A stretch of DNA of 25,010 nt. It comes from a virus. The notes beneath the pieces were generated by a model that was given only the letters and a program-made list of their open reading frames with translations, made no database searches and had not been told where the DNA came from. Below are positions 5,471 to 8,011 of this stretch, in pieces. The stretch covers positions 1 to 25,010 of IMG/VR virus record IMGVR_UViG_3300028287_000028; one strand, 5' to 3'. Position numbers and translations under genes: made by a program. The first letter of the stretch is position 1; every line of letters starts with the position of its first letter.

Positions 5471-5478
5471 CACTTTAG

Positions 5479-5508
5479 ACCTCACTAGTTCGCTAGTGAG
5501 GTTTTTTT
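5479..5508 (+). terminator. Rho-independent terminator after capsid gene
   Basis: A perfect 10-bp stem ACCTCACTAG / CTAGTGAGGT closes a stable TTCG tetraloop and runs straight into seven T residues. It lies 42 bases after the gene 23 stop and ends the head operon. The left side has no A-run, so it should act on rightward transcripts only. Confidence 0.92.
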
Positions 5509-5732: not shown

Positions 5733-6053
5733 TTACTCAAGATCCATAAGTTTCTGTTCTATCAGTTGCTTCTTGTAAACCTTTCGTTCCATCTCACTTT
5801 GCAAATACTCATATCTAGATTTTTCTGCGGATATAAGAGGCGTGTTACTCAGTTCTTTGTTCCTGTAATGAGCAATGACCTCGGCGTCCTTCTTGATATC
5901 TAACCCGATGATCTCGGCCTTTAGTTCAAACTCGGCGCTTCTCGCAACGTGTCTGGCATCCAGGAACAAGAATGCCGCAAACATCGATCCGAACAGCGTG
6001 AGTATAGTCAAAACAGTGGTGGCCAAATTAAGAAGATGTTTTTCGTCTTTCAT
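5733..6053 (-). CDS. Leftward late membrane/coiled-coil protein (106 aa)
   Basis: The only substantial gene on the minus strand. It encodes MKDEKHLLNLATTVLTILTL..., with a single membrane segment at about residues 9-31 followed by about 70 residues of charged helix likely to form a coiled coil (AEFELKAEIIGLDIKKDAEV; RYEYLQSEMERKVYKKQLIEQ). Cleavage by signal peptidase is not evident. A late promoter TATAAATA on the same strand (6087-6080) lies 26 bases before its ATG, so it should be expressed with virion and lysis genes. The topology (short N-terminus, one span, long coil) is like inner-membrane spanins of the Rz type, but no lipoprotein partner is seen, so this stays a hypothesis. A 31-residue membrane protein follows directly. 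Confidence 0.75.
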   Translation of the reverse strand: MKDEKHLLNLATTVLTILTLFGSMFAAFLFLDARHVARSAEFELKAEIIGLDIKKDAEVIAHYRNKELSNTPLISAEKSRYEYLQSEMERKVYKKQLIEQKLMDLE

Positions 6054-6079: not shown

Positions 6080-6087
6080 TATTTATA
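6080..6087 (-). promoter_or_regulatory. Leftward T4-type late promoter
   Basis: The minus strand reads TATAAATA exactly. The expected start is near 6074, leaving a leader of about 20 bases before the ATG at 6053. It is divergent from the early-type promoter that begins 27 bases away on the plus strand, so the intergenic region is an early/late divergent switch point. Confidence 0.75.
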
Positions 6088-6090
6088 CTG

Positions 6091-6155
6091 TTAAATCAAT
6101 GACTTGGCACCTATTGTGGTTTTAGACGGAATCGACGATAATACTTGTCTAACAA
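6091..6155 (+). promoter_or_regulatory. Early-type promoter, repeat copy A
   Basis: TTGTGG (6114-6119), a 17-bp spacer and GATAAT (6137-6142) form a sigma70-like promoter. The surrounding sequence from AAATCAATGACTTGG (6093) to the -10 box is repeated at about 7936 and 9029. Copy A is the most diverged, and its sequence downstream of the -10 box differs from the other two. It faces the accessory genes beginning at 6241, about 98 bases after the -10 box. Confidence 0.75.
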
Positions 6156-6206
6156 CTTGAGAGCCGGGGAAACCGACTTAACCCGTGTACTTAATTTGAT
6201 AACTAA

Positions 6207-6474: not shown

Positions 6475-6555
6475 CCACTAACCAACCCCCCAACCAGGGC
6501 CCGTAATCAGTCGAGGCTTTCAGGTGAACCAACCAACCATAGGAAACAAGAACAG

Positions 6556-6732
6556 ATGAAAAACAAAGGACCATTCGCAGACAAAACAGTACGCGACCAG
6601 TGGCAGGGCGGCGGCTACTGGCATGGAGTCAAGCGCCACCCCAAGGCAGCTGCCGCATTACAACGCAAATCTGCGCGAATGCGTGGTATCACTGTGGCTG
6701 AATTCAGAGCCGCACACCCCGAAACAACATAG
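6556..6732 (+). CDS. Small basic hypothetical protein (58 aa)
   Basis: A 58-residue protein beginning MKNKGPFADKTVRDQWQGGG, with YWHGVKRHPKAAAALQRK and a C-terminal RMRGITVAEFRAAHPETT. It is Arg/Lys/Ala-rich and has a Gly-Gly-Gly turn; it may bind nucleic acid through its basic middle, which is inference from charge only. The start is fixed by the repeated leader AGGAAACAAGAACA one base before the ATG. The stop TAG overlaps the next copy of the same leader. No known family is recognised. Confidence 0.65.
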   Translation: MKNKGPFADKTVRDQWQGGGYWHGVKRHPKAAAALQRKSARMRGITVAEFRAAHPETT

Positions 6733-6744
6733 GAAACTAGAACA

Positions 6745-7014
6745 ATGAAAAATGAATACATAGAAGTCGTCAAGAGGTGGCAAGCAGGAGAGGATGTGAG
6801 TCAAGAGGAACTAAAGGCAAATGCTAAGGCTGCTGCTGATGCTTCCTCTAAGGCTGCTGATGCAGCCTCTAAGGCTGCTTCTCGTGCTGATGATGCTTAT
6901 GATGCTGCTTATGATGATGCTTATGTTGCTTATGTTGCTTATGTTGCTGCTGCTGATGCTGCTGCTGCTGATTACTGGGTTAAAAAATACGAGGAGTTAA
7001 CTAATGAAAAATGA
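6745..7014 (+). CDS. Alanine-rich repeat protein, copy 1 (89 aa)
   Basis: An N-terminal cap MKNEYIEVVKRWQAGEDVS and a C-terminal cap YWVKKYEELTNEK enclose about 50 residues made almost only of Ala, Asp, Tyr, Ser, Lys and Val. In the DNA the middle is a GCT-dominated triplet tract (GCT interspersed with GAT, TAT and GTT). Ala-rich periodicity would give a long amphipathic helix. The start follows the leader AGGAAACTAGAACA directly. It is a tandem duplicate of the next gene, and its 3' end, including the GAGGAG that encodes Glu-Glu, provides the ribosome site for that gene; the two overlap by 11 bases. The function is unknown. Confidence 0.75.
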   Translation: MKNEYIEVVKRWQAGEDVSQEELKANAKAAADASSKAADAASKAASRADDAYDAAYDDAYVAYVAYVAAADAAAADYWVKKYEELTNEK

Positions 7015-7259
7015 ATACATAGAAGTCGTCAAGAGGTGGCAAGCAGGTGAAGTAGTTAGTGTAGAAGCACTAAAGGCAAATGCTGATCGTGCTGCTGGTG
7101 CTGCTGATGATGCTTATGCTGCTTATCGTGCTGGTGCTGCTGCTCGTGCTGCTGCTGCTTATGCTGCTGATGCTGCTGATGCTGCTGGTATTTATGATGC
7201 TCCTGCTGCTGCTGATGCTGCTTGCTGGGTTAAACGATACGAGGAGTTAACCAATGACG
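6745..7259 (+). repeat. Tandem duplication of ~259-bp gene unit with GCT triplet tracts
   Basis: Two units start at 6745 and 7004 (period 259). Each begins with the same 44 bases and ends with the same ACGAGGAGTTAAC-AATGA motif (one base differs). Inside each unit is a GCT-rich triplet tract (about 6818-6972 and 7081-7223) typical of slippage-prone coding microsatellites. Confidence 0.85.
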
Positions 7260-7270
7260 AAATTGACTAA
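7004..7270 (+). CDS. Alanine-rich repeat protein, copy 2 (88 aa)
   Basis: The first 44 bases are identical to copy 1, encoding MKNEYIEVVKRWQAGE. The core is again an Ala-rich triplet tract but with different order (RAAGAADDAYAAYRAGAAAR), then the cap CWVKRYEELTNDEID. The caps are conserved while the repeat core differs, as expected for a fast-evolving triplet tract between constrained ends. Its Glu-Glu codons GAGGAG again serve as Shine-Dalgarno for the following gene, which starts 17 bases before this stop. Similar cap-and-Ala/Tyr-repeat proteins occur in other large phages as far as I recall, with no assigned function. Confidence 0.75.
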   Translation: MKNEYIEVVKRWQAGEVVSVEALKANADRAAGAADDAYAAYRAGAAARAAAAYAADAADAAGIYDAPAAADAACWVKRYEELTNDEID

Positions 7271-7670
7271 AAGCATGTCTAGAAAAGAACTTGAACAGTT
7301 TCAACAAACATTAGTCGCAGTGAACTGGGAAGATGTTGAGACAGGTAAGGTGGACAAGAAAGTCTACAATAAATATATTTATCAAAAAAATAGAGTGCAT
7401 GATCTGCTGACATCCTTTGTATTGGCAGACATGAGAGTTGAAGGTGATCTGAAAAGAAACAAAATGTTCAAAGAAACTCGTGATGTTGAAATCCAAATGG
7501 TTACTGATAGACTTCATAAGGAAACCTGTTCACGTCCCCATGATTGTGAGATGATGGCTTGTCTGTACACATGGGGCAATTGGGAAAATGATGTCGGAGA
7601 AGATATGTATGACTTTTATTTGAAAGCAGAAAAGTTAGTAGCACATGTAAGAAAGTATGGTTTAATATAA
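7254..7670 (+). CDS. Hypothetical protein (138 aa)
   Basis: A 138-residue, mainly helical, charged protein: MTKLTKSMSRKELEQFQQTL at the start, then a Lys-rich middle and CSRPHDCEMMACLYTWGNWEND with three Cys and a His near residues 91-105 (CSRPHDCEMMAC), which might bind a metal. Starts overlap the upstream alanine-rich gene by 17 bases and use its GAGGAG as ribosome site. No family recognised; part of the early accessory operon. Confidence 0.65.
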   Translation: MTKLTKSMSRKELEQFQQTLVAVNWEDVETGKVDKKVYNKYIYQKNRVHDLLTSFVLADMRVEGDLKRNKMFKETRDVEIQMVTDRLHKETCSRPHDCEMMACLYTWGNWENDVGEDMYDFYLKAEKLVAHVRKYGLI

Positions 7671-7695: not shown

Positions 7696-7950
7696 ATGTA
7701 TAAGGGTGAATTGACATTGCTAGAGATTGCCGAGATGGGACTCGGATTAGATGACCCGTATGGTGATGGGACAACGCTCCAGAATGTACGGAGTCGAGCG
7801 GTGGGTCGGCAGGACGCGATAAACCTGGTTCACAATAGACAGTACCCGTTAGACCACACCGCGATTCTGGAGCAATATGAGAGCGTGGTGAGAGATTCAC
7901 GGTTAGTCAGATTGAAGTACCCAGATTCTTCTATTAAATCAACGACTTAG
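7696..7950 (+). CDS. Hypothetical protein, possibly helix-turn-helix (84 aa)
   Basis: An 84-residue protein, MYKGELTLLEIAEMGLGLDD..., with GAGGACGG upstream of the ATG. LTLLEIAEMGLGL followed by TTLQNVRSRAVGRQDAINLV has the spacing of a helix-turn-helix or a NUMOD-type DNA-binding segment, but this is only a visual impression. The stop codon falls inside early promoter copy B (AAATCAACGACT), so the promoter's left arm doubles as its last codons (KSTT). No close family is recognised. Last gene of the first accessory transcription unit. Confidence 0.55.
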   Translation: MYKGELTLLEIAEMGLGLDDPYGDGTTLQNVRSRAVGRQDAINLVHNRQYPLDHTAILEQYESVVRDSRLVRLKYPDSSIKSTT

Positions 7951-8011
7951 CGACTATTGTGGTTTTAGACGAAATCGACGATAATAGTTATATAACAAAT
8001 TAAAGAAGAAG
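7934..8011 (+). promoter_or_regulatory. Early-type promoter, repeat copy B
   Basis: TTGTGG (7957-7962), 17-bp spacer, GATAAT (7980-7985). The 76 bases from AAATCAACGAC (7936) to AAAGAAGAAG (8011) match copy C at 9029-9104 with only five differences, four of them clustered in the spacer. The unit includes the leader and ribosome site of the gene at 8020. An AAATC-ACGA motif occurs twice within it, at 7936 and 7972. Confidence 0.8.

What the first reader, a model, noticed from the sequence alone, without database searches (positions are those of the whole stretch)
6745..7259. Tandem alanine-rich genes built on a GCT triplet tract with constant caps
Two adjacent genes share the first 44 bases and the 3' cap exactly, while their Ala/Asp/Tyr cores differ and are composed of GCT-type triplets. 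The 3' cap codons GAGGAG double as the ribosome site of the next gene in both units. This is a self-propagating gene format: each copy brings the start signal for the next. The triplet tract should vary in length by slippage, a possible phase or length-variable protein.
Basis: partly seen in the sequence, partly recalled or inferred. Interest (0 to 1): 0.62.

Follow-up and report, generated by a model that had tools for sequence, protein, structure and literature searches.

The report
Shuffled tandem alanine-helix phage gene family
A marine-type phage carries two back-to-back copies of a small, previously uncatalogued gene with fixed ends and a variable alanine-rich helical middle; about 60 relatives sit in similar head-to-tail rows in unrelated phages, where they appear to be shuffled by recombination.

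Summary
The two genes (W1 6745-7014, W2 7004-7270) are real. Their first 44 bases are identical and their cores are almost pure NNT triplets (Ala=GCT 51/53, against 23% in the other genes). The C-terminal codons GAGGAG sit 7 bases before the next gene's ATG. The 3' cap is not "exactly" identical.
The format is not a local oddity. I found about 60 copies in 19 viral contigs, in rows of 2 to 8, in phages of unrelated types. There is no match in Pfam, PHROGs, NCBIfam, PDB, isolated phages, plasmids or GTDB contigs. At 34 of 36 junctions the genes overlap by 11, 4 or 8 nt, and the Glu-Glu codons are biased to GAG, so the cap-as-ribosome-site claim holds.
Slippage or phase variation is not supported: near-identical genomes keep identical core lengths. 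Instead, one near-identical phage pair switches abruptly inside the array, and core modules recur at other offsets. This indicates recombinational shuffling.
Non-alanine residues recur every 3.5 residues, so the cores are selected as amphipathic helices. Function is unknown; the best guess is variable acidic helical binding proteins for host take-over or counter-defence. Why third positions stay T is unresolved; an overprinted hydrophobic frame is possible but unlikely.

The parts
6728..6744 (+). Leader with ribosome site (CATAGGAAACTAGAACA) before W1; 94% copy of the leader at 6538-6554 before the preceding gene
   Evidence: repeat D8
6745..7014 (+). W1, first copy: 89 aa, cap-core-cap
   Evidence: profile match to the family
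6745..6822 (+). N-cap of W1 (MKNEYIEVVKRWQAGEDVSQEELKAN); first 44 nt identical to W2
   Evidence: helix 4-13 and start of helix 20-45 in the model
6823..6975 (+). Core of W1: 51 codons, 44 with third base T, Ala/Asp/Tyr/Val-rich, non-Ala residues strongest at period 3.5
6976..7014 (+). C-cap of W1 (WVKKYEELTNEK, stop); GAGGAG at 6991-6996 is the ribosome site of W2
7004..7270 (+). W2, second copy: 88 aa; overlaps W1 by 11 nt
7082..7225 (+). Core of W2: 48 codons, 47 with third base T; all 28 Ala are GCT
7226..7270 (+). C-cap of W2 (WVKRYEELTNDEID, stop); GAGGAG at 7241-7246 is the ribosome site of the next, unrelated gene
7254..7670 (+). Downstream gene (138 aa, no family) whose start lies inside the W2 C-cap
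6821..7000 (+). Open +1 frame inside W1 (59 aa, Leu/Met-rich); a direct consequence of the NNT rule, no evidence of use
7080..7250 (+). Open +1 frame inside W2 (56 aa, Leu/Met-rich); same remark

Best explanation
W1 and W2 belong to an uncatalogued accessory gene family of tailed phages. Each gene makes a 60-120 residue, mostly acidic, all-helical protein: a conserved N-terminal helix-turn-helix cap (NKHIELVKKWLADxxSVSxEELKAN), a variable alanine-faced helical core and a conserved C-terminal helix (WVKRYEELT). Genes stand head to tail. The C-cap codons carry the ribosome site and start of whatever follows, so a new copy can be added, lost or swapped without breaking expression downstream. The near-identical junction (C-cap plus N-cap, roughly 45-70 nt) is inferred to be the handle for homologous recombination, which expands, contracts and mixes copies within an array and between co-infecting phages. 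Core segments also move between copies. The cores are inferred to have begun as GCT triplet tracts and to have diversified mostly at codon positions 1 and 2, keeping a heptad-like helical pattern. The product is inferred to be a set of variable helical binding proteins, most likely for host take-over or counter-defence. Shown: family, architecture, overlap and ribosome-site bias, triplet make-up, helix periodicity, presence in unrelated phages, one switch between near-identical contigs. Inferred: recombination at the caps as the mechanism, expression, and function.
For: Family: searches with profiles find copies in 14 contigs plus five more. Junctions: overlaps of -11 (19), -4 (9) and -8 (6) in 34 of 36 pairs; GAG bias at the cap Glu codons. 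Unrelated phages: T4-like head protease, scaffold, major head protein, clamp and PolB in the window; PolA-type, terminase/portal and HK97-like genes in others. Shuffling: contigs L058 and L013 are about 99.9% identical over 3 kb, then switch inside copy 2. A 48-nt core module is shared exactly between two phages at different offsets, and 46 nt between tandem paralogues; 17 pairs share 30 nt or more, against 0-5 in codon shuffles, although several of the 17 are aligned orthologues. Nearest N-cap and C-cap are in another contig for 39 and 41 of 53 copies. Protein-level selection: power at period 3.5 is 32.6 against 12.1 +/- 1.8 in shuffles. Models are all-helical, mean pLDDT 78 and 75.
Against: The contigs are metagenomic assemblies, so a switch inside repeats could be a chimera; only one clean near-identical pair was available. 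Caps are short, and nearest-cap statistics on 27-30 nt are noisy. No neighbour or homologue points to counter-defence (PADLOC; no family). Some copies are solitary with a stable, non-repetitive core conserved in related phages (L056:16357-16635 and L061:2310-2624), so not every member is in a shuffling array. The W2 model is weak (pTM 0.41).
Confidence: 0.6

Rival explanations
1. Length-variable or phase-variable protein: the GCT tract slips during replication, so tract length changes often and acts as a switch.
For: Cores are triplet repeats; core length varies from 16 to 89 codons; orthologues differ by in-frame duplications.
Against: Two copies in near-identical genomes have equal length and one substitution in 114 core codons. 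The tract is broken up by Asp, Tyr and Arg codons, and triplet changes keep the frame, so no on/off switch results.
Confidence: 0.1
2. Neutral low-complexity relic: duplicated GCT-expanded genes without function that decay with time.
For: Third-base T falls as core complexity rises (rho -0.65), as expected if expansion is followed by decay.
Against: Caps are conserved across unrelated phages; ribosome-site codons are kept; non-Ala residues follow a helical period of 3.5, not 3; almost all frames are intact.
Confidence: 0.08
3. Overprinted gene: NNT codons in frame 0 make NTN codons in frame +1, which are always hydrophobic and never stops. A selected hydrophobic peptide in frame +1 would explain why third positions hold still.
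For: The +1 frame is open over most of the core in nearly all copies and, in the commonest form, ends at the TAA next to the next gene's start. In orthologous repetitive cores only 6 of 39 substitutions are at position 3, against 27 of 54 in the caps (Fisher p=8e-4).
Against: The +1 start codon is not at a fixed place and lacks a well spaced ribosome site; the frame is broken in several copies (L006:4001, L009:818, L013:1063). Openness follows mechanically from NNT. Frame 0 carries clear protein-level selection. Few pairs were usable, and caps may be replaced by recombination, which inflates their divergence.
Confidence: 0.08

Closest known systems
Translationally coupled overlapping genes (NTGA -4 and -8 spacing; review PMC12548453)
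   Same: Start of the next gene overlaps the stop of the previous one; -4 and, less so, -8 are the spacings the review names as common.
   Different: Here the commonest spacing is -11, which the passages read do not list as enriched, and the coupled partners are copies of the same gene in rows of up to eight.
Module shuffling by promoter early stem loops (PeSLs) in T4-type phages (described in PMC4503421)
   Same: Short repeated sequences serve as recombination sites that shuffle accessory genes; the window is T4-like and has a 76-nt repeat flanking this region (6083-6158, 7926-8001).
   Different: The repeated handles here are coding caps inside the genes themselves, and the family also occurs outside T4-like phages.
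Alanine-zipper / Alacoil-type coiled coils (plant GAGA factors, PMC3037368, title and abstract only)
   Same: Alanine face with coiled-coil-like 3.5-residue periodicity.
   Different: No sequence or fold match was found; oligomeric state unknown.
Alanine-rich putative immunity proteins (Imm-5-like, recalled from memory)
   Same: Small alanine-rich helical proteins.
   Different: No Pfam match for any of 46 members at E 0.01, apart from one weak FliC hit; the resemblance is only a lead.

Membership tests
Translationally coupled gene arrays | Overlapping or near-touching stop and start codons in most pairs | tested here: met
   34 of 36 pairs overlap by 11, 4 or 8 nt
Translationally coupled gene arrays | Ribosome site inside the upstream coding region, kept by codon choice | tested here: met
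   GAG at first cap Glu 40/49 against 43% background, p=9e-8
Translationally coupled gene arrays | Downstream translation depends on upstream translation | not testable with these tools
   needs an experiment
Phase-variable (contingency) gene with a simple repeat | Tract length differs among near-identical genomes | tested here: not met
   equal lengths in L058/L013 copies 3 and 4; L051 and L052 identical over 4.9 kb, though these may be the same phage
PeSL-type shuffling in T4-like phages | Early promoter plus stem-loop between shuffled modules | tested here: inconclusive
   76-nt flanking repeat with weak hairpin, z -0.17 and -1.16; promoter scan no better than chance
Any catalogued protein family (Pfam, PHROGs, NCBIfam) | Profile match by most members | tested here: not met
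   at most 2 of 46 members match any family, weakly
Solved or predicted folds (PDB, BFVD) | Significant structural match | tested here: not met
   W1 model: no match with E <= 0.001; one sequence hit at E 0.46 to keratin

The most novel reading that the evidence does not exclude
The arrays are a phage-borne diversification system: constant coding caps act as recombination handles, and triplet-built helical cores are shuffled between tandem copies and between unrelated phages, giving a changing set of helical binding proteins against variable host targets. A still more unusual variant, a selected hydrophobic peptide overprinted in frame +1, is not excluded (about 0.08).
Probability: 0.25. Interest if true: 0.78.

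Novelty: new variant of a known kind. Interest (0 to 1): 0.57.

Why it matters
It is a gene family with a recurrent, compact format (fixed coding ends, variable helical middle, ribosome site inside the cap) that spreads across unrelated phages but has no entry in the protein family libraries searched. If the shuffling reading is right, it would be a simple way for phages to make variable proteins without a dedicated enzyme system, and it points to an untested set of candidate host take-over or counter-defence proteins.

Tried and rejected
Searches of isolated phages and plasmids with full and caps-only queries gave nothing credible (the low-complexity filter masks much of the core, so only the caps were effectively searched); two scans of GTDB contigs gave no confirmed relative. 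Fold searches returned only chance helical bundles. PADLOC on ten genes around the pair and Pfam on ten other window genes gave no defence link. Ordinary codon usage was rejected as the cause of NNT: Ala goes from 23% to 96% GCT within one genome, and the excess also covers GAT and TAT. A DGR-like adenine-specific mechanism was considered and dropped because the differences are not adenine-specific; no search for a reverse transcriptase was made. The +1 hydrophobic frame was examined and kept only as a low-probability rival. Papers on alanine-rich tandem phage genes: none found in the open library.

Full report
WHAT IS THERE. The window is part of a T4-like phage genome: head protease, scaffold, major head protein, tail tube, helicase, late sigma factor, SbcC-like subunit, sliding clamp, clamp loader and family-B DNA polymerase all match PHROGs at E below 1e-30. 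Between the major head gene and the tail tube gene lies a stretch of small genes without known relatives. Two of them are the finding: W1 (6745-7014, 89 aa) and W2 (7004-7270, 88 aa). Their first 44 bases are identical. GAGGAG inside each C-cap lies 7 nt before the next ATG, at 7004 for W2 and at 7254 for an unrelated 138-aa gene.

THE TRIPLET CORE. In the cores, 44 of 51 and 47 of 48 codons end in T. Ala is GCT in 51 of 53 cases, while the other genes of the window use GCT for 23% of Ala. Pooled over ten contigs, 1343 of 1742 core codons end in T, where 629 are expected from the same phages' own synonymous usage. So the triplet make-up is real and is not ordinary codon usage.

A FAMILY. A single-protein search found two relatives, a second search one more, and profile searches extended this to 14 contigs with 1 to 11 copies each, plus five further contigs, a few of them overlapping or near-identical records of the same phage. 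In all there are about 60 copies. Nearly all stand in rows of 2 to 8 (eight in contig G002, with three more elsewhere in it). No library family covers them, nor were relatives found in the PDB, isolated phages, plasmids or GTDB contigs. The contigs are different kinds of tailed phage: T4-like (window, L060), family-A polymerase phages (L056, L057, L061, L063), a terminase/portal/scaffold set (L058), HK97-like head genes (L059) and others. Apart from the arrays, the window shares genes only with L060 and L055 among the contigs compared.

THE JUNCTION. In 34 of 36 adjacent pairs the next start overlaps the previous stop: by 11 nt (19), 4 nt (9) or 8 nt (6). The Glu-Glu codons of the C-cap supply the ribosome site in nearly all; in some -8 junctions of the L014/L019 group a further AGAGG-type site lies between them and the start. 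Codon choice shows selection for it: the first Glu is GAG in 40/49 and the second in 31/48, against 43% in other genes, while Glu in the N-cap is GAG in 54/219. The -4 and -8 spacings are common in prokaryotes and short overlaps are linked with coupled translation (PMC12548453); coupling itself was not tested here.

SLIPPAGE OR SHUFFLING. Two contigs, L058 and L013, are about 99.9% identical over roughly 3 kb, including two whole copies whose core lengths are identical, with one substitution. Moving upstream they switch abruptly, within the core and C-cap of the second copy, to different cores and different upstream genes. In L014 one cassette lies after another that it precedes in L017 and L019. 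Exact core modules recur at other offsets: 48 nt between two phages (L011, L016), 46 nt between tandem paralogues; 17 pairs share 30 nt or more against 0-5 in codon-shuffled controls (several of the 17 are aligned orthologues). The closest N-cap and C-cap mostly lie in other contigs. I read this as recombination through the near-identical caps. Slippage or unequal crossing has acted more slowly: orthologues differ by in-frame duplications such as 42 nt in L014 against L019. There is no sign of a phase switch. Assembly chimerism cannot be excluded for the single near-identical pair.

THE PROTEIN. Non-alanine residues of the cores recur with period 3.5 (power 32.6 against 12.1 +/- 1.8 in shuffles; period 3.0 gives 14.9). 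Lags 3, 4, 7 and 10 are enriched, lags 2, 5 and 9 depleted. This is the mark of an amphipathic helix with an alanine face and shows selection on frame 0. Pooled, the signal is strong; taken alone, W1 follows it and W2 does not. Members are acidic (median net charge -5, mean pI 4.8). AlphaFold models of W1 and W2 are all-helical: a short helix, a turn, then long helices (mean pLDDT 78 and 75); the W1 model has no significant fold match.

WHY T IN THE THIRD POSITION. Third-base T declines as the core becomes more complex (rho -0.65), as expected if cores start as GCT tracts and decay. But in orthologous repetitive cores only 6 of 39 substitutions fall at position 3, against 27 of 54 in the caps (p=8e-4). 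The 39 and 54 leave out the non-repetitive solitary pair, a choice made after seeing the data; with it included the core shows 16 of 57, no different from a third (p=0.48). One reading is that NNT in frame 0 makes every +1 codon NTN, hydrophobic and never a stop, so that a hydrophobic peptide overlaps each core. Its start is not fixed, it is broken in several copies, and its openness is a mechanical result of NNT, so I give it about 8%. The question stays open.

VERDICT. The slippage and phase-variation reading is not supported. Function is inferred only; counter-defence or host take-over by variable helical binders is the guess I would test first.

Noticed in passing
window 6083-6158 and 7926-8001: A 76-nt direct repeat (84%; central 33 nt differ at one base) flanks the block of small genes that holds W1 and W2, each copy just upstream of a gene group. 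It occurs nowhere else in the window or the loci fetched; possible regulatory or recombination element.
   Followed up: partly
window 5733-6053 (-) and L055 13227-13503: A small gene on the minus strand is 97% identical over 274 nt to a gene in contig G002, which otherwise shares only the array family with the window and holds 11 copies of it: suggests recent transfer between the two.
   Followed up: no
L011 4308-4820 and L010 1058-1387: The last copy of two arrays is fused in frame to what follows, after loss of the stop/start arrangement, so the C-cap is joined to an unrelated tail.
   Followed up: no
L056 16357-16635 and L061 2310-2624: Solitary member with a non-repetitive core conserved between two related phages; its substitutions fall mostly at position 3, like an ordinary gene, unlike the repetitive cores.
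   Followed up: partly
window 5477-5504: Strong terminator-like hairpin (12 pairs plus T run) just after the major head protein gene.
   Followed up: no
window 6538-6554 and 6728-6744: A 17-nt leader with ribosome site (CATAGGAAAC[A/T]AGAACA) is repeated before gene 6556 and before W1.
   Followed up: no
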